Source: Solirubrobacterales bacterium (lineage in GTDB: Bacteria > Actinomycetota > Thermoleophilia > Solirubrobacterales > Solirubrobacteraceae). From it: a stretch of 58,358 nucleotides of DNA. Made by a program: the position numbers and the translations under genes. The notes under the pieces are model-generated. The model saw only the letters and a program-made list of their open reading frames with translations. It was not told the DNA's origin and ran no database searches. The stretch covers positions 1-58,358 of the forward strand of contig DAIDJO010000014.1 of the NCBI GenBank assembly GCA_027451345.1. Reading direction: 5' to 3'. Of this stretch, positions 1,698 through 58,358 are shown in pieces. The first letter of the stretch is position 1; each line of letters begins with the position of its first letter.

Positions 1698-2256
1698 AAT
1701 CGTCGGGCGGTTGAGCAGGGCGCGTACCGTGAGGCGCCAGCGCCACGAGCGCGTCAAGCAGCACGCGCCGCGCCTCGCCACAGATCGGGTCGACGGAGTT
1801 CACGGGCTTTGAAGAGACCCGGTGAGGGCTTTGAGCGACGGCACTCGCCAAATCGCCTCGTTCACGCTCATCCACCCCAGCAGCGCCTCCCCCTCGGCCG
1901 GACGAGCGCCACCACCTGCCATGGATCAAGACATACGCCATCGCGCTGACCCTCTCGCCTAAGCTTTCTGACGCGGCCCAACCGTTCGCGTGCGCCGTTC
2001 CGTACGCGCCCCGCCGAATACTGCCCGAGGAGCCCGAGGGACACGCCCTGCGCTTCAATACCTCGAGCGAACTCGTGGGCATCACGCTGGTCAGCCCGCG
2101 TCACTGGATCCGGCAAGAGCGCCATCTGCCAATCACCCTCCCCCACCAGCTCGACATCGAGGACGCCACATGCTCCGCGCTCGTCGCTGCCTGACGACCG
2201 ACCGTGAGCGTCCGGACGTCATCATCACGGTCCGCGACAGCAGCACGCGCCGAGCC
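1698..2256. other. Non-coding or degenerate gap between helicase gene and jetD
   Basis: This stretch separates the convergent ends of the helicase gene (plus strand) and jetD (minus strand). No intact gene is supported. Open frames here have the arginine/proline/serine-rich composition expected of chance frames in GC-rich DNA. The only protein-like signal is a possible DUF2283-like tail near 2034-2194. I see no T-rich intrinsic terminator. Confidence 0.5.
1901..2194 (+). pseudogene. Possible remnant of a DUF2283-like protein
   Basis: One plus-strand frame, open without a convincing start, ends at TGA 2192-2194. Its last ~55 codons read like the tail of a small DUF2283-type protein: HALRFNTSSELVGITLVSP followed by a short helical end (LPITLPHQLDIEDA). 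DUF2283 proteins have the pattern of a hydrophobic strand, D-x-x-G-x-[LI]-V-G-I-E. Here the acidic turn is degraded and the expected N-terminal YDPEADALYI strand is not visible. I call it a remnant at low confidence; it could be a chance frame. Confidence 0.25.
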
Positions 2257-10341: not shown

Positions 10342-10440
10342 CCTGCGCACACGGTGGCAGGGCAGGCGGACGGATCAGCGTCGCGGAATCGTCGACGCTC
10401 CGTCATCAACTGTCCGCGCCCCCGTCTACGTTTCGCTGCC

Positions 10441-10832: not shown

Positions 10833-11630
10833 ATGAGCGAGGATCCCTCAATCCACGAACGGGTTCGTGACCTGCGCGCGCAGCACTACGCCCCGGCCGA
10901 GATCGCGCGGGTGCTGAGAATCAGCAAGTGCGAAGCCACTCGGCTCGTCAGAGCCGTCGCGGCCCAGACTGTGGCGGACGCCGCCGCTGCAGGTGAGGGT
11001 GGACAGTCGACGCAGTGTTGGGTGAACCCTGGTTGGAGTCACGGGCTGAGCATTGCCGGCCACGATCACTGGCCGCGCGATGCCCGCCCCGCGTCGGAGG
11101 CCACCGGGAGCGGCGTCGCGGTCGTGATGGTCGCCACACCCGCCGGTCACGACCGGCTCGAGGTGTGCACTTTCCTGGTTGACACGTGGTGTTTGGGCGT
11201 CAAGAACGCGATGGGTCCGACGCGTGTGAGGACCCGCCGGCTCGACGAGATCAGGCGCCAGTGCTATCTCCCATGGCGCTCCGCGGGTCTACCCGCGCCG
11301 CTCGAACTCGGACAACACCTGGTGCTCGGAGCCGTCGAGTTCGCCCAGCGACTCGGCTTCGAGCCGCATCCGGACTTTCGAGCCGCCCGGCCGGCGCTCG
11401 GCAGCCGGGAAGGACCCAGCGCGATCACGTTCGGACTGAACGGCACGCCTCATTACATCAACGGCCCCTACGACGACCCTCGACGTGTACTCGCGACGCT
11501 CGAGCGGAACGTCGGTCGCGACGGGTTTCACTACACCGTCGCAGTCGGTGAGGCTGACGACCCAGGTGACGGCTTCAGTTACTCCGTCACGCGGACCGCT
11601 CGGGACGAGCCCCTCCGCGACGCGGCATAG
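10833..11630 (+). CDS. Helix-turn-helix protein of unknown function
   Basis: 265 residues. Residues ~8-45 form a homeodomain-like helix-turn-helix (RDLRAQHYAPAEIARVLRIS, then KCEATRLVRAV). The rest is a globular domain with conserved-looking features: CWVNPGWSHGLSI near 60, TFLVDTWCLGVKNAMG near 110, GAVEFAQRLGFEPHPDF near 170 and GTPHYINGPYDDPRRVLATL near 205. I recall similar actinobacterial hypothetical proteins with VDxxCLGVK and GPYDDP motifs but know no function. It follows the antitoxin-like gene on the same strand after 167 bp. It may be a regulator or a DNA-associated accessory protein. Confidence 0.7.
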   Translation: MSEDPSIHERVRDLRAQHYAPAEIARVLRISKCEATRLVRAVAAQTVADAAAAGEGGQSTQCWVNPGWSHGLSIAGHDHWPRDARPASEATGSGVAVVMVATPAGHDRLEVCTFLVDTWCLGVKNAMGPTRVRTRRLDEIRRQCYLPWRSAGLPAPLELGQHLVLGAVEFAQRLGFEPHPDFRAARPALGSREGPSAITFGLNGTPHYINGPYDDPRRVLATLERNVGRDGFHYTVAVGEADDPGDGFSYSVTRTARDEPLRDAA

Positions 11631-11689
11631 GACCCCGCGCCGGGCACCGTGACGAGATCGAAACCGGGCACGTGCACCGATCCCGCGTC

Positions 11690-12345
11690 TTCTCAAGCAG
11701 CACGCTTGACGGTCTCCGAGGATATCTCAGAGCACATTGAGCCTTCGCCCCGAGCTCCGCAGTTGGTGGGTGCATGGATGGGGTGAACCGTCTGTAGGTA
11801 TGGCTGTTCGGCGTTCTCGGGCGGGTGGGCCGTGTGTCCACGCTTGCGGGCTGCGTATGGGCGCCGCTCGAGGGGGTGAAACACGGGCGCATCTCGAGGG
11901 GGCCATTGAGGTCACGGAACCCGCGTTCGGCTTCGAGCAGGTCCTTGTCGCCCAGCGTGACGTCCTCGGCTGAGGTCCGGGCCGCTGATGGCGAGCAGGT
12001 ACGTCCGTCGGGCCTGGCTTCGGCGGCGATCTTGGAGCGGTCGATCTTCAACCGGCCGGCCGGTGTCTGGCGCAGATAGCGCCCCAGGCTCGGGTCGTCA
12101 CGCAGCGCGAGTTCGGCCGTCGTGTGGGTCGTCTGCTGCTTGGCCTTCGTCGCCTGCGTCGTGTTCCTCGCGGCGAGCGTCTCGTGGCGCGGCGCGTCGA
12201 TCCGCTCGAGCTCGGCCTGGAGCCGTTGGATCGTGTGGTCGCGGGCCTGCTTTTGGGGTGCCGCCTCACCGGGGGTTGTGGCGGATGATGAATCGCATCG
12301 CGCCGTCGCGCATCCGCTCCCCGGCGATCCAGTGCCCACCCGTCC
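11690..12345 (-). pseudogene. Decayed IS1634-family (DDE) transposase fragment
   Basis: Reading the minus strand, fragments resemble the C-terminal half of IS1634-type transposases: GAMRFIIRHNP (about 12285-12320), then in another frame DHTIQRLQAELERIDA, LALRDDPSLGRYLRQTPAG and the catalytic-glutamate region DLLEAERGFRDLNGPLEMRP. These are spread over at least two frames. Frameshifts lie near 12285 and after RPCF near 11885; the following HRLE...LLCWLALLL block is degenerate. No terminal inverted repeats are obvious. The N-terminal DDE half is absent, so the element is long dead. Its upstream edge abuts a P-type ATPase fragment on the other strand. Confidence 0.7.
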
Positions 12346-12364
12346 ACCACCCCGTCACCGCCGT

Positions 12365-12616
12365 CAGGACGAGCGCCGCTCGTTCGGACCCCCGTCCGAC
12401 CCGGATCCTCCTGATCGCGGTGATCGGCACCCAGATCCTCGCCACCGGTGTCACCGCCGCCGGGTTGCTCATAGGTCAACCTCTGCGCTGGGACCTGATC
12501 GCGCTCGCCTTGGGTGCGCGCTCGTCTGGAGCCTCGTGCTCGACCAGTTGAAGATGATCGCCTACCCGCGCCTCGAGCGATGCCCCAGCGCTGACGCCGG
12601 GGGGCCGAGCCGGTGA
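12365..12616 (+). pseudogene. C-terminal remnant of a cation-transporting P-type ATPase
   Basis: The last ~80 codons of a P-type (plasma-membrane H+-ATPase-like) pump are visible on the plus strand in two frames. DERRSFGPP gives way to TRILLIAVIGTQILATGVTA and LLIGQPLRWDLIALALG, then after a frameshift near 12515 CALVWSLVLDQLKMIAYPRL and a stop at 12616. The VIGTQILAT transmembrane segment and the [LV]DxxK[ML][IL]AY end are typical of the last two membrane helices of these pumps. At least two frameshifts are present and everything upstream is missing, replaced by the transposase remnant. The tail overlaps the end of the opposite-strand membrane-protein gene by about 55 bp. Confidence 0.6.
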
Positions 12617-13584
12617 CGCGGCTGAGGGTGGGTGAGCGCGCAGAGCGCGCAGGCGAGCAGCACGAGTAGCGGCGCGGAGTTGGGGTCGGTCGCGCCGCCA
12701 GCGAGGATCCCACCGAAGCCCTGCCCGACCACCCAGAACACCAGGTTGCTCAGGATCGAGAGCCACAGGAACGCTCGAGCGTGCCAGTTGCCGGCAACGG
12801 CGAGCCCGATCGCGATCGAGATCCCGGCGAGCGTGAGGCCGATCACCAGCCCGTGGCCCGCGGTGACCGTCGCCAGCCACACCTGGAGGTGGGCCAGCCA
12901 TCCAACTCCCGAGGGCGCACCCTGGATCGTCTCGCTGATGGCATTCGGGCTGCTGCTCGCCGCGACGACCCACAGCCACGCGATCAACAGCCATAGGGCA
13001 CCCCACATGAGCCGCGCCCCGCGAACGCCGAGCAGGCCTCCGGGGCGCCCACCGGGCCAGACGACCAGTCCCACGAGCAGGTACAGGATCGCCGCGCCGG
13101 GCGAGCCGGACAGGGGATCGGCCATCGGCATGAGGATCATTCCGAACCCTTCGCCGAGCCACCAGACAAGCGATGCCCACACGAACGACAGCATCAGCGC
13201 GGGCTTCACCGTGCGACGGTGCAGCAAGCCGAGCCCAATCGTGATCTGCACCAGCGCGAAGAGCGTGTTGAGCAGCGCCTGCTCGGACTGCACGATGTTC
13301 GCCGCCCAGTTCACGCTGTCGGCGAGCCACGACGGCTCGCCCAGCGCGTTGCCGGTCAGCGCCTCGATGAACCCACGTCCGTACATGAACGATTGAAACT
13401 GCAGCGCCCCGTCGAGCAGCCAGATCAGTCCGAGCACCACCTGGATCGCGCGTCGGCTATCGGCGCGCAAGCGGCCACGCGCCCATGCACCCGACGCCGC
13501 AGCACGGGCAAGCGGCCCACGCTGCAGCAGAGCTTCCGCGGTGCGATTCGGCGACGGCCAGGACAACGACATGTCCGTGACCAT
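12562..13584 (-). CDS. Multi-pass integral membrane protein, unknown function
   Basis: 340 residues with about seven or eight hydrophobic helices: AIQVVLGLIWLLDGALQF near residue 45, LFALVQITIGLGLL near 108, ALMLSFVWASLVWWL near 128, ILYLLVGLVVWPGG near 165, LMWGALWLLIAWLWVVAASS near 190, then further segments near 240, 265 and 295. WLLDGALQFQSFMYG and LVWWLGEGFGMI resemble a widespread but uncharacterised actinobacterial membrane-protein family. The C-terminal ~25 residues (arginine/proline-rich) run over the P-type ATPase remnant and may not be native. It is the only intact gene within a stretch of broken ones. Confidence 0.7.
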   Translation of the reverse strand: MVTDMSLSWPSPNRTAEALLQRGPLARAAASGAWARGRLRADSRRAIQVVLGLIWLLDGALQFQSFMYGRGFIEALTGNALGEPSWLADSVNWAANIVQSEQALLNTLFALVQITIGLGLLHRRTVKPALMLSFVWASLVWWLGEGFGMILMPMADPLSGSPGAAILYLLVGLVVWPGGRPGGLLGVRGARLMWGALWLLIAWLWVVAASSSPNAISETIQGAPSGVGWLAHLQVWLATVTAGHGLVIGLTLAGISIAIGLAVAGNWHARAFLWLSILSNLVFWVVGQGFGGILAGGATDPNSAPLLVLLACALCALTHPQPRHRLGPPASALGHRSRRG

Positions 13585-38165: not shown

Positions 38166-39539
38166 ATGCCCTCCAGGGCCACCCCCGAGAAGCTTCCTCC
38201 GATCAGCCTGAAGGTGAGCGACCGCGGTAGCGGACCGCGGTACTACGCGGACTTCCGTCACGGCGGTAAGCGCACAACGCTCGCCGTCGGGCCGGCCTGG
38301 CTCGCGCCGGACACTGAGGGTGGCTGGCGATCGCGCCGCGGCCGCGCGCAGGACGGGTTCTATGACGAGCGCACCGCAACCGTGCAGGCGGCCGCGCTGG
38401 TCAGCAAGTACGTGAACGATGCGGCCGACGTGGAGCGCGTCGAGTTCGAGCGCAAGAACCGCGGCGTCACATTCCGCGAGGTTGCACACGCGTACCTCGC
38501 CTGGTTGGAAGACGTGAAGGACGCAGCACCATCGACGCTGCGCAGTCACCGCTCCGATCTGCGCGAGCCCGGCGAGGCGTACAAGCGCGGCAACGGCACC
38601 ACGTCCGGATTCATCATGGCCGGCCTCGGGGATATCCCCGCCGCAAAGATCACTCCGGAGCAGGTCGATGATGTACTCGATGCGGTGGCGGCTTCCGGTG
38701 CCGGCGCGCGCAGCGTGAATCGGCGGCGGGAGATCATCGTCGCCGTCCTCAACTTCGGGATGAAGTCGAGCCGCTTCAAACTGCGCTTCCCTGACGGCAA
38801 TCCAGCTGCTGGCTCCCAACGCAGGCGCCTCCCCCAAGCCGCCGCCCTCGAGTTCTACACCCCCGAAGACGTCGAGGCTCTTGCGCGCGCTCTCGCGAGC
38901 GGCCTTCACCGGCCCCCTGACGACCGCGCGCGCAGAACCACCCATGAGGTTCACCAGGACACGCAAGACGCTGAGGCGGTACGGGTATCGGCTTACCTAG
39001 GCCTGCGGCAGGGCGAGCTACTGGCGCTGCGCTGGCAGGACGTGAACTGGACCGCCGCGACGGTGACGATCAGCCGCACCGTCAGCGCCGAAGTCGAGCG
39101 CAATACGACAAAGGGTCGCAAGGTCCGGATCGTCCCGCTCAGCGACCCCGCCGCGGCAGCGCTCAACCGTCTATCCCAACGCGGGGAATACACCGATCCC
39201 GGCGAGTTGGTGATCTGCAATGGCTTCGGACGACGACTCGACGGGTCCGCACTGCGACGCCGGTTCAACCGCGCGCGAGAGGCTGCCGGGCTTCGTGAAC
39301 TGCGCTGGCACGACCTGCGCCACAGCTTCGGCAGCCAACTCGTCGCCAGCGGTATCGACCTCGAGGACGTCCGGGACGCGATGGGACACGCCCACCTGGC
39401 AACAACGGGCCGCTACCTCCACGCGCGACCAGCAACACAGCGAGCCGCGGCGTACACGCGCGCGTTTGCTTCGGCCGAGGAGATCGTCGCGCGTCACCCT
39501 GCCGTCACGAATCCAACGAACGAGGAGGCCAATCTGTGA
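38166..39539 (+). CDS. Tyrosine recombinase / site-specific integrase
   Basis: 457 residues; ATG 38166 follows TAGGATG with AGGA about 8 bp upstream. It inserts and excises the island at the tRNA-Met core. An N-terminal SAM-like DNA-binding domain (FREVAHAYLAWLEDVKDAAP near residue 100) precedes the catalytic domain, in which all active residues are visible: arginine in YLGLRQGELLALRW near 278, lysine in NTTKGRKVRIVPL near 318, HDLRHSFGSQL (HxxR) near 380, histidine in GHAHLATTGRYL near 408 and the nucleophilic tyrosine in TGRYLHARP near 416. It reads away from the tRNA fragment 149 bp to its left. The gene is intact and probably functional. Confidence 0.95.
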   Translation: MPSRATPEKLPPISLKVSDRGSGPRYYADFRHGGKRTTLAVGPAWLAPDTEGGWRSRRGRAQDGFYDERTATVQAAALVSKYVNDAADVERVEFERKNRGVTFREVAHAYLAWLEDVKDAAPSTLRSHRSDLREPGEAYKRGNGTTSGFIMAGLGDIPAAKITPEQVDDVLDAVAASGAGARSVNRRREIIVAVLNFGMKSSRFKLRFPDGNPAAGSQRRRLPQAAALEFYTPEDVEALARALASGLHRPPDDRARRTTHEVHQDTQDAEAVRVSAYLGLRQGELLALRWQDVNWTAATVTISRTVSAEVERNTTKGRKVRIVPLSDPAAAALNRLSQRGEYTDPGELVICNGFGRRLDGSALRRRFNRAREAAGLRELRWHDLRHSFGSQLVASGIDLEDVRDAMGHAHLATTGRYLHARPATQRAAAYTRAFASAEEIVARHPAVTNPTNEEANL

Positions 39540-39698
39540 GCGAGCTACGAGCGAACCGGCTCCTCGTCGCGAGTCCCTCCGAGCGGAGGACACCAGACCG
39601 TCCGCGAGGTGGCTGACTTCCTCAAGGTCTCGGACCAGTCGGTCTACAACTACGCGAAGAACGGCACTCTCCCGAGCCGAAAGCTCGGGAGCACCTAG
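39536..39698 (+). pseudogene. Frameshifted excisionase-like helix-turn-helix gene
   Basis: GTG 39536 overlaps the integrase stop (GTGA), the usual arrangement for a small excisionase gene, and begins MSELRANRLLVASP. After about 15 codons the meaningful sequence moves to another frame: TVREVADFLKVSDQSVYNYA then KNGTLPSRKLGST, a MerR/excisionase-type HTH (compare xVxEVAxxLxVSxxTVYxxxxxGxLPxxKLG). It stops at TAG 39696-39698, before the expected last strand and helix. One frameshift and an early end mean no normal product. Confidence 0.6.
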
Positions 39699-39880
39699 TG
39701 TTTCTCCGCCCACAGTTAGAAGCCATTTTGTGGGGCGAATCGTCCCCGTAGATGTGTGGATGGGACCCTGTCCTTGGCGGACCGGCTGTCTGGCGGCTCG
39801 CTCGTGCTATCGCTCGCCACGACAGTAGGGGCCGAGGATGCCGGCAGCTCGGGTTGGCGAACCGTGTCCGAGTGTCACCT
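39699..39880. other. Short non-coding stretch, nothing recognised
   Basis: About 180 bp between the broken excisionase gene and the end of the DUF262 gene. No gene, tRNA or clear terminator is visible. A GC-rich inverted repeat (CTCCCGAG...CTCGGGAG, near 39669-39691) precedes it but lacks a T-tract. Confidence 0.4.
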
Positions 39881-41707
39881 TCAGGCCCTGTCCAAGATGA
39901 TCTCCGTCACACCCAGCTCCTCGGCCCGCGTCCTAAGCCACACATCAGGTATCGGCTCGGTTCCGGCTAGCACACCGGGCGGCACCGGGTCATGGGTAAG
40001 GATGTATTCAGTGCGGAGTCGATCCAGCAGCTCTTCCTTTGACAGCGCTGCGGGCCGAAAAGCGGAAGTCTCAAGCTCAGCATCCTCTGCTTCGTCGCCT
40101 TGGACCACGCTCTGGCCAAAAGCGGATTCGAGCTGCTCGCGAAGCAGTGTGTTGCGTTGAGCTAACAACGACTCAGGATGGTGAAGAAGCTCAGACATCT
40201 CTCCGTCTGGCAGCAACTGGTCCCGCCCAACGCCCTCAGTCGGCCATCCCAGTCCGCCGAGTTGGGTTTCCCCAGGCGCCATAGCACCCAACGCCTCCGC
40301 TGTGCCACGCAATGCGAAGATTTGACTCATTGCGAGATTGGATGGGATTCCCGCCGCATCCGCCGTCTTCTTACCGACGAGGTAGGTGACGACAACGTCG
40401 GTCGATCCGCCTTCGAGCAGCGGCCGGAGTGGCGTTCCGTCAAGATCGTGTGGTTTGAGAGATGCCAGCAAGCAAAGGATGGCTCGTGAGATTGCGCGAT
40501 TCGACCGCCGAGTTGCGGACGCGATGGCATCGCCATTGGCTGCCGGAACCGGAAGAGAGCTCCCCTCGCGCACTCTGGTCAACAGCTCGTAATCCTCGAC
40601 TACCCGGGTGTTCGCAGCGGCATCGAATCGGAGTGCGAAGGCACGTGAGAAGAACCAACGCCTTAGGGTCTCGGCATCGGCTTGGAGTGGTCGGTCCCAG
40701 GCAAGAGCGGCCAAGATCACGAGCATTGAGTCGTATGGCAGCCACTCTCGACGCAACACACCTAATTCGGCGCGAGCAAACCTAATCGCAGATCGCATTC
40801 CCTCGATCGCGCCGGGCCAAGCAGCGCGAAGCTCGGCAGAGTCGAGCGACAGGACCGCGCTCCTGCGAACACTCCGCAGTCGCCGCAAAGCCACTACCTG
40901 CAGGACGGCCAAACCGTCCTCGCCGAGGTACTGTGCTAGCTCCGGCGCGTCTAAGGTGGCCTCCTCCCAAGCCTCTCGGAGATCCCAGGTGTCCGTGAAC
41001 ACCTTTGCAACTGAAAGATCGAACGTACCGAGCTGCATACCGGTCCGATTCACCCTTTCAAAGATCCGGGCGATGTCGCTTTCAGCCTCCCGCGCGTCGA
41101 TCGTGGTCGCAGGGAAGACGTAGCTCGGCAGATGATGGAGGTACCGCTGGTACAGCTCGTTGAGTGCCTTATCGGTCCCTGCAACCTCAAGGAGCGTCCC
41201 TTGGCGACGTTGATCGTCTACCCAGCCGAAGAACGAATCTGCAGTCTTCAAGCAGTAAAACGGGATCATTGAAGCTTCAGCCCATTCCCGACCGCGCAGG
41301 CGGCGATTCCATTGCTCCCTCGGGAAGCTGCGGACGCAATCCTCTAGTTCCTCGACCGTGTCCGCACCGGCGGCTTCTGCGCTCACGGCGTAGACGTACT
41401 TACCTCGATCAAGCAAAGCATGAAAAAGGGACGTAAGTCGTTGCTGACCATCGAGAACTACGTACCGTGGCTCTTGGGACGGCTCAGGCCCTTCTTCGAA
41501 GGCCCTCAACTCAAGAAAGGTCGAATTGCCACGAAGCAGCAGAAGACTGCCAGACGGCCACCCCATCATCACTGTCGCGAGCATCGCGCGCGCATCTGAA
41601 GGGGTCCAGTCGTAGTCTCGCTGGAACGCGGGCAGCGCAACGCTCCCATCGAGCACACCATCTAAGAGGTCGACTAGCCGTTCGGAGTGTGTAGTGGACT
41701 CAAGCAT
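39881..41707 (-). CDS. DUF262-domain protein (GmrSD-like)
   Basis: 608 residues. The N-terminal DUF262 (ParB/Srx-like NTPase) domain is clear: LDGSVALPAFQRDYDWTPSD near residue 18, WPSGSLLLLRG near 50 and the catalytic DGQQR motif YVVLDGQQRLTSLFHAL near 85. DUF262 proteins include the GmrS half of GmrSD type IV restriction enzymes and many defence genes. The C-terminal part is helical, but where GmrSD proteins carry the HNH motif HHIFP, this protein reads VVVTYLVGKKTADAAGI, with no histidines, so nuclease activity is doubtful. It shares one base with the stop of the upstream membrane-protein gene (TAATG). Base composition is visibly lower in GC than the neighbouring DISARM genes, suggesting separate acquisition. 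Confidence 0.85.
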   Translation of the reverse strand: MLESTTHSERLVDLLDGVLDGSVALPAFQRDYDWTPSDARAMLATVMMGWPSGSLLLLRGNSTFLELRAFEEGPEPSQEPRYVVLDGQQRLTSLFHALLDRGKYVYAVSAEAAGADTVEELEDCVRSFPREQWNRRLRGREWAEASMIPFYCLKTADSFFGWVDDQRRQGTLLEVAGTDKALNELYQRYLHHLPSYVFPATTIDAREAESDIARIFERVNRTGMQLGTFDLSVAKVFTDTWDLREAWEEATLDAPELAQYLGEDGLAVLQVVALRRLRSVRRSAVLSLDSAELRAAWPGAIEGMRSAIRFARAELGVLRREWLPYDSMLVILAALAWDRPLQADAETLRRWFFSRAFALRFDAAANTRVVEDYELLTRVREGSSLPVPAANGDAIASATRRSNRAISRAILCLLASLKPHDLDGTPLRPLLEGGSTDVVVTYLVGKKTADAAGIPSNLAMSQIFALRGTAEALGAMAPGETQLGGLGWPTEGVGRDQLLPDGEMSELLHHPESLLAQRNTLLREQLESAFGQSVVQGDEAEDAELETSAFRPAALSKEELLDRLRTEYILTHDPVPPGVLAGTEPIPDVWLRTRAEELGVTEIILDRA

Positions 41708-42507
41708 TATTTAGCCCGGATTGGGGCGTTAGGTACTGCTCCAAGCCCGGCGAGTAGCCCGGTCATCCACCTCTCGGTCGACGGGCTTGATTCCAGTTCG
41801 AATGTCAGTGTCACCGGCAGTTCACCCGGATCCGCCTTATAACTCCCTGGGAGTGTGACGATTGCCGTCTTATCCCCGATAACCAGCCCAGTTCCAGTCA
41901 CGCCTCTATACAGCAGTGGCGATAGTTTGGCTCCCCTGACCAAGGCTCGACTCGGCTCAAGAACCTGCCAGCTATTAATCGCAGAATCGTAGACACGTTC
42001 GAGCGATCGTTTGAGGTGATCTTTGTCGGCGACGTCGAGCTGTCGCGCCAATGCCGCGAGAGTGGTGTCATCGTTCCAGTTCGGCAGATACAGAAATACA
42101 TCGACTTTGGCTTGACGGGCACGGTCCAGGATCGCGGCCCAAATTCCCGACGTCGTCCACGCCAGCGGATTGTCTGGCAAAACGGTGATGCGGCCCTTGT
42201 CGGCAAGATACTTGTCCCACTCTGGAAGGCCGATCACAACGTTCGCGAGACCGACTTCCGCCATGTCGCCGCTTAGGTCGGTGGCGGTGAAGACATCCCG
42301 AACCACCTGTTTCCGGAGATACGGCTCATACAGACCAATCAGAAAGGCGGAGGTGACAAGGACTGCTCCGATCTCACGCCCGACGGTCCCGATAGAACTC
42401 TCGTCCCCAGTGGTGATCCAAAGCACGAAGACACCAAGGGCGAGGAGGCCGACGGCGGCCGCGAGCGACCAGGTCACATACGAGCGTAGTGAGATCGTTC
42501 GATTCAT
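41707..42507 (-). CDS. Membrane-anchored protein of unknown function paired with DUF262 gene
   Basis: 266 residues. Two N-terminal transmembrane helices (SLAAAVGLLALGVFVLWITT near residue 14 and EIGAVLVTSAFLIGLYEPYL near 45) are followed by a ~200-residue cytoplasmic alpha/beta domain: GRITVLPDNPLAW near 105, AAILDRARQAKVDVFLYLPN near 125, LARQLDVADKDHLKRSLERV near 150 and TLPGSYKADPGELPVTLTFE near 220. The pattern of strand, then FLYLPN, loosely recalls phospholipase D-like or receptor-type folds, but no HKD motif is present. I do not recognise the family. Co-translation with the DUF262 gene (1-bp overlap) suggests a two-component system with a membrane effector or sensor. Confidence 0.75.
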   Translation of the reverse strand: MNRTISLRSYVTWSLAAAVGLLALGVFVLWITTGDESSIGTVGREIGAVLVTSAFLIGLYEPYLRKQVVRDVFTATDLSGDMAEVGLANVVIGLPEWDKYLADKGRITVLPDNPLAWTTSGIWAAILDRARQAKVDVFLYLPNWNDDTTLAALARQLDVADKDHLKRSLERVYDSAINSWQVLEPSRALVRGAKLSPLLYRGVTGTGLVIGDKTAIVTLPGSYKADPGELPVTLTFELESSPSTERWMTGLLAGLGAVPNAPIRAK

Positions 42508-51900: not shown

Positions 51901-52893
51901 CGGGTGAAGGGCGGCATCCTCGCGTAGCCGCTCGTGTAGCGCCCCCAATGAGTAGAAGCGGCTGAACACAGGGTGGGCGGGCAGCAGTCCGCGTTCCTCG
52001 GCATACAGGAGAAAGACCAGGCGCATCACCACGGTGAGCAACGCGCGGTAGATGTCTTCGGGGGAGTCGGCGAGGGTCGGGCCCAGCAGCTCGCCGCCGG
52101 TTGCGCCGTCGGCGGCCTGGAAGCCACGCAACAGCTCATACAGAGCATGAAGCACCTGCCCGGACAGACGCTCAGAAACCTCGTTCTGGAACTTCCGGCT
52201 ATCGCTCAGCAGCGCGGCGAGTCGTTGGCCGGGCGGGAGGGTCAGCAGGCGAGACTGCCTGAGCAGCAGCCGCATCGCCTGTGCGATCGGGCGCCCGGCA
52301 GGCTGGAGCATGTCCGCAACGGCGAAGTCGAGCCAGCCTGAGCTCTCGCCACGGGGGGCTGAGAGCAGCCGCAGCGTGCGCCCATTTGTGAGCAGTCCCG
52401 CGGCGACGCTCGTGGTGCGCAGCAGGCGCTCAAGCTGCTGGTGTGGTGTCAGGCGCGCGTCCGCATGCCGGGGCTCCTCGTCGAGTCCTTGGTCCGGCGG
52501 CACGAACGTGACGAGCAGCTGCCAGGGAGGCGAGCCGGCGGCCGGAGACAGCTCGCGCACGGCGACGTCAGGGGTGAGCAGGGTGACGTCCTCGTCGGGG
52601 AGGGTGAGCGTCAACTCCTCGGGGATGGCTACGCCGGCCAGCGGGCCGGCGTAGCCCTTTGGCGAGAACGACCAGCCGAGGACCTCCCGTGCGAACCGCT
52701 CAAAGTCCCGGATGAGCGGCCCGTCTTCGGTTTCCTCGGCAACCTCGCTCAGACGTTCCTGAGTGAGACGGTCGCTGCGGTCGAGGACGGCGCCGTCGCG
52801 CACGAGCGCGGTCGGTGAGACAACGAGGCCGGTCGGCTGGACGAATCCGAGCCATTCGAGGTGGGCGGCGATCTGCGGATCCTGAGCGGTCAT
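48973..52893 (-). CDS. drmMI: DISARM class 1 adenine-N6 DNA methyltransferase DrmMI
   Basis: 1306 residues from ATG 52893, which shares a base with the drmD stop (TGATG); a GTG at 52911 would add six residues. Eco57I/PglX-like gamma-class adenine methyltransferase marking host DNA as self. Seen: the SAM-binding motif I VCDPAMGSGAFLVEACRQLA near residue 575, the catalytic motif IV IVGNPPFAGKNTLA near 810, ATNTIGQGDTRESG near 865 and the TTCFETFPFL target-recognition-type motif near 1145. The N-terminal ~450 residues (restriction-enzyme-like VAIPEELTLTLPDEDVTLLT near 90) have no intact PD-(D/E)XK motif that I can see. Class 1 DISARM is defined by this gene plus drmD. Confidence 0.92.
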   Translation of the reverse strand: MTAQDPQIAAHLEWLGFVQPTGLVVSPTALVRDGAVLDRSDRLTQERLSEVAEETEDGPLIRDFERFAREVLGWSFSPKGYAGPLAGVAIPEELTLTLPDEDVTLLTPDVAVRELSPAAGSPPWQLLVTFVPPDQGLDEEPRHADARLTPHQQLERLLRTTSVAAGLLTNGRTLRLLSAPRGESSGWLDFAVADMLQPAGRPIAQAMRLLLRQSRLLTLPPGQRLAALLSDSRKFQNEVSERLSGQVLHALYELLRGFQAADGATGGELLGPTLADSPEDIYRALLTVVMRLVFLLYAEERGLLPAHPVFSRFYSLGALHERLREDAALHPDTISQRYGAWAQLLALFRIVHDGAAALGLPARHGELFDPDRFSFLEGRPVGRRQVGERIEPPLVPDSTVQAVLEQLLVLDGERLSYRALDVEQIGSVYETMMGFELHRASGPSIAIRASQRAGAPTAIDLTELLTVAAGERVKWIDSHAGRKLTGRTAEAVRQATSLEGLQAALAPVTDTAATPELAPAGALLLQPGEERRKSGSHYTPRSLTQPIVETTLVPLLARASTPDEILELKVCDPAMGSGAFLVEACRQLARALLDAWDAAGERPEIPADEDELIYAMRLVVQRCLYGVDRNPMAVDLAKMSLWLATLAREHPLTFLDHALRHGDSLVGLERHQIAAMHWKPGQPGLEGVVVQRHLDRVADLRGQIREATDATPDWTLRDMWDEARAELGQVTLIGDLAVACFFSAEKPKQREELRNLVALSVTNGQADQERWRIDERRDAHPPLAPFHWPVEFPEVFDRRNPGFDAIVGNPPFAGKNTLASANPAHYSDWLKQAHTDTHGNADLVAHFFRRAFDMLREQGTFGLIATNTIGQGDTRESGLGWICTHGGTIYAARKRVKWPSGGAAVVVSVVHVANGKTVATPLLDSRPVERISSYLFHGGSDQSPARLAANAGQSFQGSIVLGMGFTFDDTDTKGVANSLADMRRLLEENPVNAEIVFPYIGYSEVADSPTHSPHRYVINFGERVEDDCRLRWPELLAIVEKRVKPTRIAKTVSAIDKQRAARWWQFGSPAKQLYAAIADLDRVLVTGSQAMTRYALAFLPVGIVYSSNLTVFPFSSFAAFATLQSSVHEIWVRFFMSSLKDDLAYTPTTCFETFPFLAGWAADSELEVTGRAYHDYRSDRMVTNNEGLTKTYNRLHDPYESDPGIVRLRELHEAMDRAVLHAYGWDDIPTDNEFLLDYESDEEEWGNRKKPYRYRWPDEVRDEVLARLIQLNGERAAEEERAGPAAGATGRRRVAAAMAPPEGTLF

Positions 52894-55800
52894 CAGTTCG
52901 TGTCCGGCCACAGGTAGACGAGGCCGACCGGCTCGACGCGGCGGGCGCGGATCTCGTAGAAGCGCTCGATCCGTGCGGGTTCGGTTTCCAGGTCTGCGTC
53001 GAACTGGCCCAGGCGCCGCTCCCAGGCTCTCATGTTTGCCTCGAGCTGGCGGCGTTCCTCCTCAGCGAAGGCGAGCGTCAGCTGATCGAACTCGGTGCTG
53101 TGGCGACCCAGCTCTGAGCGCACACGTTCGCGTTGGCGGGTCAGGATGTCGCGCAGCTGCTCCGATTCGCGCCGCCCGCGCTCACTAAGGAGGTCTTGGG
53201 CTCGGGAGGCCTCATCGGCCGCCCGTACCTCGAGCGGTCCGAGCAGCTCCTCGACATCCCGTGTTGCGCTCGCCAAGAGGCGCTCCGTCACGGTTGTGGT
53301 CGGTTTCGGTGTTGCCCGATCGCCGTCGTGGTTCAACGATGCCTCGAGCAACTCAAGCGCCCGCTGTTCGGCCTCTCGGGCATATGGTGAGAGCGGCCCG
53401 TCACGCCGGTTCGGATCAACCCAGCGCGCCGCGACCGCGACCAGAACCTCGTGCAGTCGTTCGGCTCCGGCGCCGTACAGGGTCAGGCGGCCGAGTAGTA
53501 CCACACGCGGAATCGAGTCGGCGACCTGCGCGAGGCACGCGCGTGAGAGGTCATGGTGGACGAACCCTTGAGACCGGAAGCGACCGAGCAGCCGCTGCGC
53601 GACACGCTGCTCGAGGTGGAGATGCACGGTGTCCTCGGTGAGGACACCCTGATCCTCGAAGACGACCGGCCGCACCGGCGCGTTACGTCGCCAGTCCAGA
53701 AGCTTCTCATCGCGCGGTCGTGGGGTGCGCAGCGTGTCGAGCGTAGCCGCCCAGGTCGGGTCAGCCCCGGCGCACCGATCGAGCGCAGGGAACTGCCACT
53801 TGACCGGTCCGCCGGGGGCTCGGGTAGCGCGTGTCTGCAACGAGTCAGCCCCGAGAAGCTCTAGCGAGCGCGAGAGGGCGTCTCTGAAGGCGCGCTCGTC
53901 GAAGGCCACCCACTGCCGGGAGCGCTCAAGAAGGGTGCGGCATGTGTCGATCTGCTCTCGCAGCTCGTCCTGGCGCTCACGGGCTTCCTCAAGCTCCTCG
54001 CCGACCAGCTGCTTTCGATCAGCCGGGAGGTCGGTCTGCTCGATCTGTTCGGCGAGGCGATTGGCGTCGCTATGGCGGATGCCGTGCCGGAGCCCGCGCT
54101 CGATTTCATCGTCGATCACTTTCGAGAGGCTGCCGAGCTCGCGTCGGATCGTCTCGGTCTTCTTCACGAGGACATCGAGGACCCGGTCCTCGAAGCGCTG
54201 TGGCAGCACGAAGTAGTGGCAGCGGACCTGGTCGGCTGGCTGGAGCTTCCGGTCGATGCGGCCGTTTCGCTGCTCGATTCGCCCCGGATTCCACGGGAGG
54301 TCGAAGTGGAACAGATCCGCGCAGTGAGCTTGGAAGTTCAGACCCTCCCGCGCCGCGTCAGTGGCGATCAGAATCCGCAGCGGGTCCTCGGCGGGAGGCG
54401 TGTTGAAACGTCGCTGGACCTCCTGCCGGCGTGGTCCGCTCGTCAGGCCGGTGATCACCTCGATCCGTTCCTCGGCCCGATCGGTGCAGGCGATCGCCTG
54501 CTCGAGGATCTGATGCAGCCAGCGCTTGGTGCCCTCGCGACTCTCGGTAAAGATCAGCACGCGGCGGTCGTTCCACGGAGGTGTCCCTCCGTCTGCCGGA
54601 CGCTTGCCGTAGGCGGGAAGGTCGGGGCACATGTGTTCCCGGATCCAATCGATCAGGTGGAGTGCCTTCGCGTCGGGTTGGTCGCGCGACCGGTCGGCGA
54701 TCGTCTGCATCTGGTCGAGCAGTTCGGAGCGCCGGGCGTCGCGTGCGCCGGCGTCGGATCGCGGCTCGTCTGTGAGCCCAGCCTCGACGCCAGCGGTAGC
54801 GGCCTCGATGAGCTGCTGCTCAGCGACCAGCAGCTCATCGTCGGACTGGCCTATAGCTTCGTCATCCGGTCCCGGCGCCGTCGTCAGACCCGTGAGAGAG
54901 AATGCCGACGCCGGAGGTGTCTCGTCGATCGCAGTTTCGACGTCCGTGGCCGTTGCAGCGGCACGACGCTCGAGCGCCCGGCGGTGCACCTCAAGGCTCT
55001 GGGCGAACGCCTCGATCGAGGACAGCAGCCGCTGCTGCAGGCCAACAATCAGCAAGCCTGCGCTCGCCTGAGTGCGCTTGGAGGCCTGCGCGAAGCGCTG
55101 CTCGTGCACCTCGCGGTACTCATCAAGGAGACGCGAGAGGAGCAGCTCCGGCTGACCGGGGGGCAGGTTGTCGATCGCGATACGCACAACCTCTCGCTGA
55201 GGAAAGCCTCCCTGGATCGCACGGATGTCCTCCTTGAGCCGACGGACCATCACGGCCTCGAGGTCCCGCTTGCCCTTGATCTTCACTCCCCGCGTGAATC
55301 GGTACGGGTCAAGCAGCTCAAGCAGCGTCGAAAAGCTGTTCGAGTGGCCATTGTGCGGCGTGGCGGACAGGAACAGCCGATGCTCAAAGCGTCCGCTGAG
55401 GTCGCGGACGGCGCGGGTGAACTTGGTCTCGATGCCATAACGACCCCCACTCGAGGGCGCCGCATGGTGCGCCTCGTCGAGGATGAGAAGGCTGCCGGGG
55501 GCCAGCTCACCCAGCCATGCGCGCATCGGATCGGTGTAGGCCGGATCGATGAGGAGGCTGTGAGAAACCAGAAACCGGCTGTGCGTGGCCCATGGGTTGA
55601 CGCCGAACCCGCGCTCGCGCCTTACCCGTGCGACATACGCGCGGTCGAGGATTTCAAAGGTCAGACCGAACCGCTCCTCGAGCTCTGCTTTCCACTGCTC
55701 GAGCACCGAAGGCGGTGCCGCCACGACGATAGTCTTGCAGCGCTTACGCAAGAGCAGCTCGCGCGCGATCAGTCCTGCCTCGATCGTCTTGCCGAGGCCT

Positions 55801-56297
55801 GTGTCGTCGGCGATGAACAGATTCACGCGCGGGAGGCGCAGTGCCTTGCGCAACGGCTCCATCTGATAGGCGTCGATCTTGATCCCTGCCCGGAACGGGG
55901 CCTGGAATAGGTTCGAGTCGGTCGCTGTGACGCTGCTCCAGCGCAGCGTGTTGAGGAACGCCGCGAACGTCCGCGGGTCGTCGAAGCCACGCTCGCCGAC
56001 GCGCTCCCAGCCCTCGGATCGAACGATCCGACGATCGGGCTCGTACTCCCAGTAGACGCTCAGCTCCTCGCCCTGGGCGTCGTCCTCCGCGCAGGCAAGT
56101 CGCACCACCGTCGCACCAGGTGACCCTGGAGTATTGGCGCCTGTGGGGTCCATCTGGTCGGGCACTTCGACAGCGTCCACTAGCCAACGTCGAGAGCGAA
56201 GCTGCACGAGGTCGCCCTGGTTCGGAAGCTCCTCGGGGAGCGCTCCAGGAGCATGAGTCCAGGGTGTGTTCAGGGTCATCACGTGCAGACGCGGCAT
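52893..56297 (-). CDS. drmD: DISARM class 1 SNF2-family helicase DrmD
   Basis: 1134 residues from ATG 56297; an ATG six codons later is equally possible. SNF2-like ATPase specific to class 1 DISARM. Seen: an N-terminal QGDLVQLRSRRWLVDAVEV (small beta domain), Walker A LFIADDTGLGKTIEAGLIAR near residue 160, the DEAH box LLILDEAHHAAPSSGG near 270, the motif III-like LFLSATPHNGHSN near 305, the C-terminal helicase domain RVLIFTESREGTKRWLHQIL near 580 and motifs V-VI IATDAAREGLNFQAH, then DLPWNPGRIEQRNGRIDR, near 650. A charged coiled-coil-rich region fills residues ~730-1130. First gene of the DISARM operon, 170 bp from the JetD-like gene on the same strand. Confidence 0.92.
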   Translation of the reverse strand: MPRLHVMTLNTPWTHAPGALPEELPNQGDLVQLRSRRWLVDAVEVPDQMDPTGANTPGSPGATVVRLACAEDDAQGEELSVYWEYEPDRRIVRSEGWERVGERGFDDPRTFAAFLNTLRWSSVTATDSNLFQAPFRAGIKIDAYQMEPLRKALRLPRVNLFIADDTGLGKTIEAGLIARELLLRKRCKTIVVAAPPSVLEQWKAELEERFGLTFEILDRAYVARVRRERGFGVNPWATHSRFLVSHSLLIDPAYTDPMRAWLGELAPGSLLILDEAHHAAPSSGGRYGIETKFTRAVRDLSGRFEHRLFLSATPHNGHSNSFSTLLELLDPYRFTRGVKIKGKRDLEAVMVRRLKEDIRAIQGGFPQREVVRIAIDNLPPGQPELLLSRLLDEYREVHEQRFAQASKRTQASAGLLIVGLQQRLLSSIEAFAQSLEVHRRALERRAAATATDVETAIDETPPASAFSLTGLTTAPGPDDEAIGQSDDELLVAEQQLIEAATAGVEAGLTDEPRSDAGARDARRSELLDQMQTIADRSRDQPDAKALHLIDWIREHMCPDLPAYGKRPADGGTPPWNDRRVLIFTESREGTKRWLHQILEQAIACTDRAEERIEVITGLTSGPRRQEVQRRFNTPPAEDPLRILIATDAAREGLNFQAHCADLFHFDLPWNPGRIEQRNGRIDRKLQPADQVRCHYFVLPQRFEDRVLDVLVKKTETIRRELGSLSKVIDDEIERGLRHGIRHSDANRLAEQIEQTDLPADRKQLVGEELEEARERQDELREQIDTCRTLLERSRQWVAFDERAFRDALSRSLELLGADSLQTRATRAPGGPVKWQFPALDRCAGADPTWAATLDTLRTPRPRDEKLLDWRRNAPVRPVVFEDQGVLTEDTVHLHLEQRVAQRLLGRFRSQGFVHHDLSRACLAQVADSIPRVVLLGRLTLYGAGAERLHEVLVAVAARWVDPNRRDGPLSPYAREAEQRALELLEASLNHDGDRATPKPTTTVTERLLASATRDVEELLGPLEVRAADEASRAQDLLSERGRRESEQLRDILTRQRERVRSELGRHSTEFDQLTLAFAEEERRQLEANMRAWERRLGQFDADLETEPARIERFYEIRARRVEPVGLVYLWPDTN

Positions 56298-56467: not shown

Positions 56468-57508
56468 CTAGAGGCCAGCCTTGCCGCCGCGCGCTACCAG
56501 CAATTCCGTTCCGACCCATTCCTGAGCCAGACGCTCGCCCCGCTCGAGGACTGCCGCCGCGTCGGCGCGCACCTCCTCGGGCAGCCACGCCGTGAGCTTG
56601 CGCACCCGGTAGTGCGTGGGCGGGTTCTCGACGGGCACCGAACGCCCGTGGCCCAGGAGAAGTTCATAGAGCCAGGTCGCCGGCTCTACGGCGGGTAGGT
56701 TCACTGCTGTGGCTACGGTGTTCGCGTGGACTGGGATGTCGAGCCCGTCTATGTCGAGGTCCCCGAAGTAATAGACGCGTCGCGGCGGCGTGGGCAAATC
56801 GGCGAGAAACGTGACTGAGCCCTTGAAGTGCGCGCCCGCCCCGTAGATGACGACGCCGACGTCGCCTGCAGCCGGCAAGAGGCGGCAGAGAGAAACGAAC
56901 GTATGGTGGTTCTCGACGACGAGCACGTCCGGACCCGCGCCGATGACCTGGTAGACGAACGGCGGATGGACCTCCTCGCAGCGCAGCTGCTCAAGCGTCA
57001 ACCGTCCGGGCGCGAACAGCTGGCTTCCCATCAGCGTCTCCAAGCGCTTCTCGTAGCCAAATAGCTGGAGCGAGCGCTCGCGCAATGGGACGATCGGACG
57101 CTCCGAGCCGCCGTCGCGGAAGAAGCCGTTGATCGCGCGAAGGTCGGCGAGCGTCTGCGCGTCGACTGACAGCTCGCCTCCCCACGCCAGCTCCGGACGC
57201 CAAGCGACCCCGGCGCCCGAGACCCGCCGTGCCGGCCGGGGCGGGCGCTCGACGCGTACGAACCGCGGCAGCGCGGGTTTCGCGCTGCGGTCATACGAGC
57301 GCTCACCGGGCAGTTCAACAACGCCCGCATCGACCAGCTCGTCGAGGACCTCGGCCAGACGGGCGCGCCGGTCCGGTGCGTGGGCCAGCGCGGGCTCCGC
57401 CGTAACAAGCAGCGCCTGCAACTCGGCAAGTCTGACCTGCCGACGCGGCCAGGCCTCAAGTTCCTGGGCCATGCGCCCCGCGGTTACGCCAAGCGCCAGC
57501 GCGTTCAT
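56468..57508 (-). CDS. Wadjet JetD-like Toprim nuclease (DUF2220-type)
   Basis: 346 residues; ATG 57508 overlaps the stop of the SMC-like gene by 4 bp (ATGA). The C-terminal half is a Toprim domain of the DUF2220/JetD kind: the catalytic glutamate in PDVLVVENHHTFVSL near residue 200, VVIYGAGAHFKGSV near 222 and the acidic motif VYYFGDLDIDGLDIPVHAN near 245 (D-x-D), all intact. The N-terminus has a winged-helix-like DUF3322-type region (VLDELVDAGVVELPGE near 55). This differs from the DUF2399-type jetD at 2257-3549. By analogy it cuts DNA handled by its SMC partner. Confidence 0.82.
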   Translation of the reverse strand: MNALALGVTAGRMAQELEAWPRRQVRLAELQALLVTAEPALAHAPDRRARLAEVLDELVDAGVVELPGERSYDRSAKPALPRFVRVERPPRPARRVSGAGVAWRPELAWGGELSVDAQTLADLRAINGFFRDGGSERPIVPLRERSLQLFGYEKRLETLMGSQLFAPGRLTLEQLRCEEVHPPFVYQVIGAGPDVLVVENHHTFVSLCRLLPAAGDVGVVIYGAGAHFKGSVTFLADLPTPPRRVYYFGDLDIDGLDIPVHANTVATAVNLPAVEPATWLYELLLGHGRSVPVENPPTHYRVRKLTAWLPEEVRADAAAVLERGERLAQEWVGTELLVARGGKAGL

Positions 57509-58358
57509 GCCGGTGTTGGCTCGTCTGTGCGGACGTGCACTACTCGTGCGGCATCGAGGTAGCCGTGGTCGTCCTCGCCGGCGTGGCCGTTGAGAAGTGC
57601 GGCGCGTAGGTCTTCGGCCACGCGGATGCGCTGCATGCCAGCGCGCATATCGAGGTCATTGCGCAGCCGCACGACGCAGGGGAACTTCGAGAGCGCGTTC
57701 AGGTCGAAGACCCCGGTGGTGTAGATGAGCTGGACGCCGACCCGCTCGGCCACCTTCAGCTGGATGTCCAAGAGGTACTCCGCGCTCGCCTTCCCGATGG
57801 GGTTATCGAGGAAGAGCACACCTGCCCGTGGCTTCTGGCGACCACGCGAAGCCGAGCGCATGGCCGCCAGCGTGCAGTACAAAGCGATGGCGGCGGTCAG
57901 ACGCTGCCCGCCTGAGAACTCGCCCATCGCTGTGACGGGAACACGCTCGTCGCGAAGGACCGTGTCGGGCTTGAGCACCGTCACGCGAAAGCCCTTAGGC
58001 TCGGCGGCTGCCCGCACTCCGCGCAGAAGCATCGTCATGCCGTCGCGGTTGCCGATTTGGCTCACGGAGGAGTCGAGCACGTCGCCGAGGCGCTCCAGGA
58101 GAATGTCTTCGGAGTCGGTGTCGTCGAAATCGATGCGCAGGAACGGTTTGCCCGACCAGTCACCCAACTCTCCGGGGAGGCGCGACGCGCGGGCGGCCTG
58201 GCGGAGCGTCGCCAGGCCGGCCTGAACGAGGGAGGCCAGCCGCTGCAGGAGCGCCGTCCGGTGCTGCTCGATCGAGGCGAGCTCTTTGGCCACCTCGGCT
58301 GCGCGTGCCTTCAGGTGCGGGATTAGCTCGCCGCTGCGGCGGGCGAGCGTCGCGACGT
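57505..58358 (-). CDS. SMC/MukB-like ATPase, C-terminal part (5' end outside window)
   Basis: About 284 codons are visible and the frame stays open to the window edge, so the gene continues. The visible part starts with coiled coil (HLKARAAEVAKELASIEQH) and then forms the C-terminal ABC head lobe: a conserved FLRIDFDDTDSEDILLERLG strand-helix, the ABC signature MGEFSGGQRLTAAIALYC, Walker B AGVLFLDNPIGKASAEYLL and the final VQLIYTTGVFDLNALSKFP, then VVRLRNDLDMRAG. The Walker B ends in D-N where SMC and JetC proteins have D-E, so the catalytic glutamate is absent at its usual place. It is translationally coupled to the JetD-like gene. Subunits equivalent to JetA/JetB would lie upstream, beyond the window. 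Confidence 0.82.
   Translation of the reverse strand, partial: VATLARRSGELIPHLKARAAEVAKELASIEQHRTALLQRLASLVQAGLATLRQAARASRLPGELGDWSGKPFLRIDFDDTDSEDILLERLGDVLDSSVSQIGNRDGMTMLLRGVRAAAEPKGFRVTVLKPDTVLRDERVPVTAMGEFSGGQRLTAAIALYCTLAAMRSASRGRQKPRAGVLFLDNPIGKASAEYLLDIQLKVAERVGVQLIYTTGVFDLNALSKFPCVVRLRNDLDMRAGMQRIRVAEDLRAALLNGHAGEDDHGYLDAARVVHVRTDEPTPA

What the first reader, a model, noticed from the sequence alone, without database searches (positions are those of the whole stretch)
56468..58358. SMC-like ATPase plus JetD-type nuclease beside DISARM, with D-N instead of D-E in Walker B
The pair resembles a Wadjet SMC/nuclease module but the ATPase head has LFLDNP in place of LxLDE. If this is fixed in the family, ATP hydrolysis must use another residue or be slow, making it a mechanistically distinct Wadjet-like system. 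From memory, actinobacterial relatives share LFLDNPIG, but I could not verify this. Its linkage to DISARM suggests a compound defence module.
Basis: partly seen in the sequence, partly recalled or inferred. Interest (0 to 1): 0.75.

Follow-up and report, generated by a model that had tools for sequence, protein, structure and literature searches.

The report
Wadjet type III with altered ATPase
The end of this contig carries the tail of a bacterial SMC-like DNA motor and its DNA-cutting partner from a known plasmid-defence family (Wadjet type III), and the relatives examined share an unusual residue where the motor's ATP-splitting acid normally sits, so how it uses ATP is an open, testable question.

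Summary
Window 56468-58356 (- strand) encodes a complete JetD nuclease and the last 283 residues of an SMC-like JetC, cut by the contig end. PADLOC profiles make it Wadjet type III (JetC3 350.5 bits, JetD3 324.7 bits). Relatives with full operons carry JetA3 and JetB3.

D-N is not a mutation of this copy. All 54 readable JetC3 head rows (45 distinct cores; Actinomycetota, Pseudomonadota, Bacillota) read D-N-P. Type I and II JetC keep an acid there: D-E in 4 of 4 JetC1; D-E in 6 and D-D in 3 of 9 JetC2. The same contig holds a complete type II Wadjet with LDEA, not mentioned in the finding.

Most likely: ATP-gated JetABC drives JetD cleavage as in type I, but with a remodelled hydrolysis site; a Glu invariant in the N-lobe (17 of 17) is a candidate replacement acid, unproven and weakened by a nearby conserved Asp in type II. 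Close rival: very slow hydrolysis, as proposed for Lamassu LmuB.

DISARM, complete by profile, lies beside it, but the linkage is sporadic: 2 of 24 JetD3-bearing genomes of one genus.

The parts
57505..58356 (-). jetC3, 3' part only (C-terminal 283 aa: coiled coil, signature FSGGQ, Walker B LFLDNPIG); 5' part beyond the contig end
57796..57810 (-). Walker B core LDNPI (residues 183-187 of the 283-aa fragment); Asn185 at the place of the catalytic Glu
   Evidence: position from the residue numbering checked against the DNA; profile alignment; N in 54 of 54 readable rows
56468..57508 (-). jetD3, complete Toprim-type nuclease, 346 aa; acidic motifs VVEN and GDLDID present
52893..56297 (-). drmD, DISARM SNF2-like helicase (neighbour, not part of the Wadjet)
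   Evidence: NF038317, 1011.9 bits
48973..52911 (-). drmMI, DISARM adenine methylase (neighbour)
   Evidence: PDLC02643 1257.7 bits
45475..48972 (-). drmA, DISARM helicase (neighbour)
   Evidence: NF038325 1104.4 bits
43691..45478 (-). drmB (neighbour)
   Evidence: NF038324 507.3 bits
42912..43694 (-). drmC, phospholipase D-like (neighbour)
   Evidence: NF038319 168.4 bits
2257..10350 (-). separate, complete type II Wadjet on the same contig: jetA2 8803-10350, jetB2 7604-8806, jetC2 3522-7607, jetD2 2257-3549; JetC2 Walker B VMLDEA serves as internal comparison

Best explanation
The pair is the distal half (3' part of jetC, all of jetD) of a Wadjet type III operon, jetA3-jetB3-jetC3-jetD3. By homology JetC3 dimerises through two ABC heads, closes them on ATP, acts with the kleisin JetA and KITE JetB on DNA, and switches on the Toprim nuclease JetD. 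What sets type III apart is a remodelled ATP site: the Walker B catalytic Glu is Asn and the D-loop Asp is Asn/Ser/Thr in all rows read, while Walker A, the signature and the Walker B Asp are kept in most members. Because the Asn is strictly conserved and not drifting, I think hydrolysis is retained but by a different arrangement; the best candidate for a replacement acid is an invariant N-lobe Glu, usually in a motif N-x-x-E. Shown: gene identity, D-N across the relatives read, motifs in relatives. Inferred: ATP-gated cleavage, retained hydrolysis, role of the N-lobe Glu.
For: Type III profiles for both genes; in three relatives the genes beside jetC match JetA3 (3 of 3 strongly) and JetB3 (1 strongly, 2 weakly), and more loci show both. 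D-N: 54 of 54 readable rows, 45 distinct cores, 20 single-linkage clusters at 80% identity; of 31 loci found through JetD (7, the 24 strong ones), 30 were readable and all D-N. D-loop position N 36, S 17, T 1, never D. Type I JetC D-E 4 of 4; type II D-E 6 of 9, D-D 3 of 9, never N (family assignment). Asn aligned to that position (probabilities 1% and 24%, E 0.05 and 8e-4, so the register rests on the signature and Walker B motifs themselves). N-lobes of relatives: Walker A NGGGK, Asn213 and Glu216 invariant in 15 of 15; in the 17-row set that adds plasmid copies, NGGGK 16, NGNGK 1, the Glu 17 of 17, the Asn 15 of 17. Foldseek: the 17 best PDB hits of the C-lobe model are all JetC or MukB chains (low TM-scores, 2 hits with E up to 0.001), and the 19 best of the N-lobe model likewise (15 with E up to 0.001).
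Against: No biochemistry. The N-lobe Glu was chosen for conservation only. It is not as distinctive as I first thought: type II JetC has a conserved Asp (5 of 5) within one column of it in the profile alignment, and the MukB stretch read there also holds an Asp. The N-lobe model (pLDDT about 63-67 there) places it at the start of a helix after a kink, not in an obvious Q-loop, and the alignment to SMC is poor there. In L020, L034 and L035 the Walker A Ser/Thr is Gly, which fits loss of hydrolysis better. [quoted passage not shown] The window copy's own N-lobe cannot be seen. The C-lobe model is weak around Walker B (block pLDDT about 53-69).
Confidence: 0.45

Rival explanations
1. Type III Wadjet is an ATP-locked switch: the D-N heads bind ATP and close, but hydrolyse it very slowly or not at all, so the complex clamps DNA and triggers JetD once instead of extruding loops processively.
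For: Loss of the catalytic Glu is the hallmark of degenerate ABC sites (PMC7544095, abstract). The Lamassu ATPase LmuB generally has Gln there and may hydrolyse little or no ATP (PMC10586767, passages). D-loop Asp also absent in 54 of 54 rows; Walker A Ser/Thr lost in L020/L034/L035.
Against: Strict conservation of Asn, signature and Walker A suggests a working cycle. A type III-like JetC is near-universal in genus g50 (60 of 61 genomes; D-N in the 11 copies read, L002-L012), mostly without any JetD3 in the genome, so no nuclease to trigger.
Confidence: 0.35
2. The Asn makes no functional difference: hydrolysis proceeds through the Walker B Asp and the remaining site, and type III works exactly as type I.
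For: The position varies already in type II (D-D in 3 of 9). DndF's kinase domain has Asn for the Walker B Asp with an acid elsewhere (PMC10853773, passage).
Against: Type I and II keep an acid in 13 of 13; the DndF case is another P-loop class and another residue.
Confidence: 0.12
3. Wadjet III and DISARM form one compound defence module.
For: 170-bp gap, same strand in the window; JetD3 followed by drmD on the same strand, about 2 kb apart, in L035, G193 and G908.
Against: 2 of 24 strongly JetD3-positive genomes of the genus; both systems share a genome in 4 of 295 where 2.3 are expected from the separate counts; drmD not specially related; in L035 and G193 frames of the opposite strand lie between the two; 2 of 18 JetD3 loci with variable flanks show DISARM.
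Confidence: 0.05
4. A degenerate, dying copy.
For: Truncated at the contig end; D-N looks like a lost catalytic residue.
Against: Truncation is an assembly end; the frames seen are open; D-N is the family norm.
Confidence: 0.03

Closest known systems
Wadjet type III (PADLOC JetA3-JetB3-JetC3-JetD3)
   Same: JetC3 and JetD3 profiles match strongly; gene order C-D; relatives carry A and B; D-N is the rule in the relatives read
   Different: only the 3' half is on the contig; no difference in kind found
Wadjet type I (E. coli GF4-3, P. aeruginosa PA14 JetABCD; MksBEFG)
   Same: SMC-like, MukB-like head; Toprim nuclease partner
   Different: type I JetC has D-E in Walker B (4 of 4 read) and is shorter; no JetC1 profile matched the window protein at E 0.1
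Wadjet type II (TIGR02680 family; Neobacillus vireti JetABCD)
   Same: present on the same contig at 2257-10350; some members also lack the Glu (D-D in 3 of 9)
   Different: an acid, D-E or D-D, in 9 of 9 read; JetA2/B2 are DUF2397/DUF2398 proteins
Lamassu LmuB
   Same: SMC/Rad50-like defence ATPase with a natural amide (Gln) for the catalytic Glu (PMC10586767, passages)
   Different: a relative of Rad50, much smaller; Gln not Asn; different effectors
MukBEF / MksBEF
   Same: head fold by Foldseek; JetD-less JetABC operons resemble MksBEF in composition
   Different: MukB keeps the Glu (recalled); only remote similarity in sequence

Membership tests
Wadjet type III | JetC3-type SMC ATPase | tested here: met
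   PDLC00588 350.5 bits over positions 1193-1472 of 1484
Wadjet type III | JetD3-type Toprim nuclease | tested here: met
   PDLC00594 324.7 bits, JetD1/JetD2 models only weakly; JetD_C above cut-off; acidic motifs present
Wadjet type III | JetA3 and JetB3 in the same operon | tested here: inconclusive
   beyond the contig end in the window; present in relatives
Wadjet type III | Walker A in the N-lobe | tested here: inconclusive
   N-lobe not found in the assembly; relatives: NGGGK 16 and NGNGK 1 of 17, followed by Gly instead of Ser/Thr in 2 of 17
Wadjet type III | restricts plasmid transformation | not testable with these tools
   no experiment possible; one published type III deletion had no effect (PMC12645576)
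Wadjet type I | JetC1 profile and D-E Walker B | tested here: not met
   no JetC1 match at E 0.1; D-N
Wadjet type II | JetC2/TIGR02680 profile | tested here: not met
   no JetC2 or TIGR02680 match for 57505-58356; met by the other locus at 2257-10350
DISARM class 1 (neighbour) | drmD-drmMI-drmA-drmB-drmC | tested here: met
   that this set defines class 1 is recalled
Compound Wadjet-DISARM module | conserved linkage in relatives | tested here: not met
   2 of 24 genomes; 2 of 18 JetD3 loci

The most novel reading that the evidence does not exclude
Type III Wadjet is an SMC family in which the catalytic Glu of the ABC head has been given up by the whole lineage and its role moved to another residue (candidate: the invariant N-lobe Glu, usually in N-x-x-E). 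The same remodelled motor, without the nuclease, is a near-universal chromosomal complex in a large genus that I take to be Streptomyces, which would then have a second, unstudied condensin-like machine with a non-canonical ATP cycle.
Probability: 0.2. Interest if true: 0.85.

Novelty: new member of a known kind. Interest (0 to 1): 0.5.

Why it matters
Well-studied SMC motors rely on the Walker B Glu, and E-to-Q mutants are the standard way to freeze them (recalled). A natural family with Asn there would tell whether loop extrusion needs fast hydrolysis, or whether Wadjet cleavage can be triggered by ATP binding alone. The PDB has type I and type II JetABC; I found no type III entry by sequence (JetC profile, JetD profile) or among the 50 fold hits listed per search. 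The JetD-less core copy in genus g50 makes the question accessible in ordinary laboratory strains if that genus is Streptomyces.

Tried and rejected
Rejected: D-N as a mutation of this copy (54 of 54 rows N). Rejected: type I or II assignment. Not supported: compound module with DISARM. Left open: the N-lobe Glu as the Q-loop residue; profile alignments did not settle the register and the model has it at a helix start. Considered: the acid a few residues after the switch-loop position (D 38, E 13, none found 3, by a loose pattern); type II also has acids there, so not distinctive.

The same check showed the nearby Asp in type II. I lowered the best explanation from 0.5 to 0.45 and the novel case from 0.25 to 0.2, and raised the slow-switch rival from 0.32 to 0.35.

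Led nowhere: viral-contig search with JetD (no relative), phage records with JetC (none), PADLOC family PDLC00585 in 396 genomes (3 genomes, weak). Searches behind 'not found in print': in a library of openly licensed PMC papers only; Doron et al. 2018 was not held, nor was a DOI that I tried from memory for the 2020 ABC-ATPase classification. Papers: passages seen of PMC10586767, PMC12645576, PMC12287153, PMC12647877, PMC13121528, PMC10853773; abstract of PMC7544095; the rest only as listings.

Full report
What is there. The window is a whole contig (G000:C14) of an 85%-complete assembly of 3.31 Mb. The best named relative of the pair is a Solirubrobacterales MAG contig (L032; JetD 71% identity), so the host is probably of that group (inference). 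At its right end, - strand, lie a complete 346-aa JetD-like frame (56468-57508) and a 283-aa frame that runs off the contig (57505-58356), overlapping by 4 bp. Pfam places the ATPase only below cut-off and NCBIfam not at all, but PADLOC's profiles do: JetC3 350.5 bits and JetD3 324.7 bits. This is Wadjet type III. A search of the own assembly for the rest of JetC3 found only this piece.

Relatives. JetD3 and JetC3 searches gave related loci in Actinomycetota and, through plasmid records, in Polaromonas, Microvirga, Pontibacillus and E. coli among others. In L039 (Rhodococcus plasmid), L040 (Polaromonas) and L042 (Pontibacillus) the neighbouring genes match JetA3 (all three strongly) and JetB3 (strongly in L042, weakly in L039 and L040). 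The order is A-B-C-D, but D-A-B-C in Pontibacillus. In E. coli, DNA close to the L043 jetC covers at least 80% of the query in 62 of 5426 genomes (90 with any match).

The D-N. In the 19-sequence head alignment seven columns are invariant, and D184, N185 and P186 are three of them. Over the loci fetched, 54 of 54 readable head rows have N; the 55th, L115, has a broken frame there. Some rows are the same gene read in two loci; 45 distinct cores remain, 20 single-linkage clusters at 80% identity and 12 at 60%. To guard against a query biased to D-N, I read the JetC next to loci found by JetD (7; the 24 genomes with strong matches, the weaker ones not read): 30 of 31 readable, all D-N. Comparators: 4 of 4 type I JetC have D-E; of 9 type II JetC in hand, 6 have D-E, including the one on this very contig, and 3 have D-D (G042, G062, G128); none has N. 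So type I and II keep an acid in 13 of 13, though not always Glu. hhalign puts the Asn at that position in both comparisons, with low overall probability (1% and 24%); the signature and Walker B motifs fix the register. The D-loop Asp is also absent in type III: N 36, S 17, T 1.

The rest of the ATP site. In 17 N-lobes of relatives, Walker A is NGGGK in 16 and NGNGK in 1, followed by Ser or Thr except in L020 and L034 (and in L035), where it is Gly. In the 15-sequence N-lobe alignment the invariant positions are NGGGK, a Pro, a Leu, and Asn213 and Glu216 of a motif N-x-x-E; in the 17-row set the Glu is kept in 17 and the Asn in 15. I took this Glu as a candidate for a moved acid. Against it: type II has a conserved Asp (5 of 5) one column away in the profile alignment, the MukB stretch read there also has an Asp, the alignment to SMC is unreliable there, and the model (mean pLDDT 78) has it at a helix start. 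Models of both lobes find JetC and MukB heads in the PDB, with modest TM-scores; the C-lobe model is moderate (mean pLDDT 70.6, about 53-69 around Walker B).

How it may work. Type I Wadjet needs ATP and a functioning JetC ATPase for DNA cleavage, which acts on circular DNA (PMC10586767, passages). For ABC exporters, lack of the Walker B Glu marks degenerate sites (PMC7544095, abstract), and Lamassu LmuB generally has Gln there and may hydrolyse poorly. From these, type III either hydrolyses by another arrangement or works as a slow switch. I favour the first at 0.45 because the Asn, Walker A and the signature are so strictly kept; the second stands at 0.35. I recall that Doron et al. 2018 found a type III Wadjet active against plasmid transformation, but could not check it. 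A type III deletion in C. necator H16 had no effect on electroporation or plasmid stability under the conditions used.

A JetD-less relative. Genomes here are unnamed; I take genus g50 to be Streptomyces because its genomes are mostly 7-12 Mb and its jetABCD3-drmD locus in G193 closely resembles that of S. afghaniensis (L035). A JetC3 highly similar to L002 is present in 60 of 61 genomes of that genus, at 82-95% identity in 58 of the 60; D-N was read in 11 such copies, L002-L012. In the three loci examined (L094, L101, L102) jetA3-jetB3-jetC3 has no JetD3 homologue within about 7 kb downstream, and in L094/L107 the identified neighbours are a NIT-domain histidine kinase and a CT_C_D protein, not defence genes. 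A JetD3 search of 295 genomes of the genus matched 40, 24 of them strongly; of the 59 JetC3-positive genomes whose handles I could place in that draw, 47 had no JetD3 match at E 0.001. Two genomes of the window's own family (G556, G469) also have JetABC3 without a JetD3 hit in the flanks.

DISARM and the window's other defence genes. A DISARM set complete by profile lies 170 bp from jetD. The order jetABCD3-drmD-drmMI occurs in L035 and G193, and drmD lies beside JetD3 in G908, but only 2 of 24 strongly JetD3-positive genomes of the genus have drmD within 3 kb; drmD exceeds its cut-off in 28 of 295, and both systems share a genome in 4 where 2.3 are expected. The window's drmD is no closer to the linked ones (30.6% over about 1130 aa) than to five others (34.5-35.0% over about 740 aa; similar bit scores). 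I read this as co-residence in defence islands.

Novelty. The locus is a new member of a known kind. I found no description of the family-wide Asn in the openly licensed papers searched, which does not show that none exists.

Noticed in passing
window 2257-10350: A complete type II Wadjet (JetA2-B2-C2-D2) with a VMLDEA Walker B lies at the other end of the same contig.
   Followed up: yes
L052/L083 (G042), L053/L081 (G062), L076/L147 (G128): Three of nine type II JetC proteins read have D-D instead of D-E in Walker B: the catalytic position varies in type II as well.
   Followed up: partly
window 38166-42507: A tyrosine recombinase (Phage_integrase), a GmrSD_N protein (39881-41707) and a 266-aa protein without a family match above cut-off lie just beyond drmC; with DISARM and Wadjet III they look like a defence island. 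No tRNA was found in the window.
   Followed up: partly
L094, L101, L102; Near-universal type III-like JetC in genus g50 (60 of 61 genomes; taken to be Streptomyces), mostly in genomes without any JetD3 match; flanked in L094/L107 by non-defence genes.
   Followed up: partly
L098, L099 (G556, G469): JetABC3 with very long JetC frames (1905 and 1869 codons stop to stop) and no JetD3 hit nearby, in the window's own family.
   Followed up: no
L020, L034, L035: Walker A reads NGGGKG: the Ser/Thr after the Lys is Gly in this clade, part of which is DISARM-linked.
   Followed up: partly
L014/L033 (same contig) and L017: JetD has ISG or VSG where other JetD3 proteins have V-x-E-N, so the presumed Toprim Glu is missing in these genomes.
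   Followed up: no
L017 1372-3603 (-): One 744-codon frame matches JetA3 and, at residues 450-743, the JetC3 C-lobe, with no JetB match: a fusion, deletion or assembly error.
   Followed up: no
L115 (G864): JetC3 frame is broken just before the Walker B region beside a JetD3 frame.
   Followed up: no
L105 about 1278-3082, L035 about 11039-12843: Between jetD3 and drmD lie two frames on the opposite strand (219 and 401 codons) that by eye look like a PIN-like protein and a helix-turn-helix regulator.
   Followed up: no
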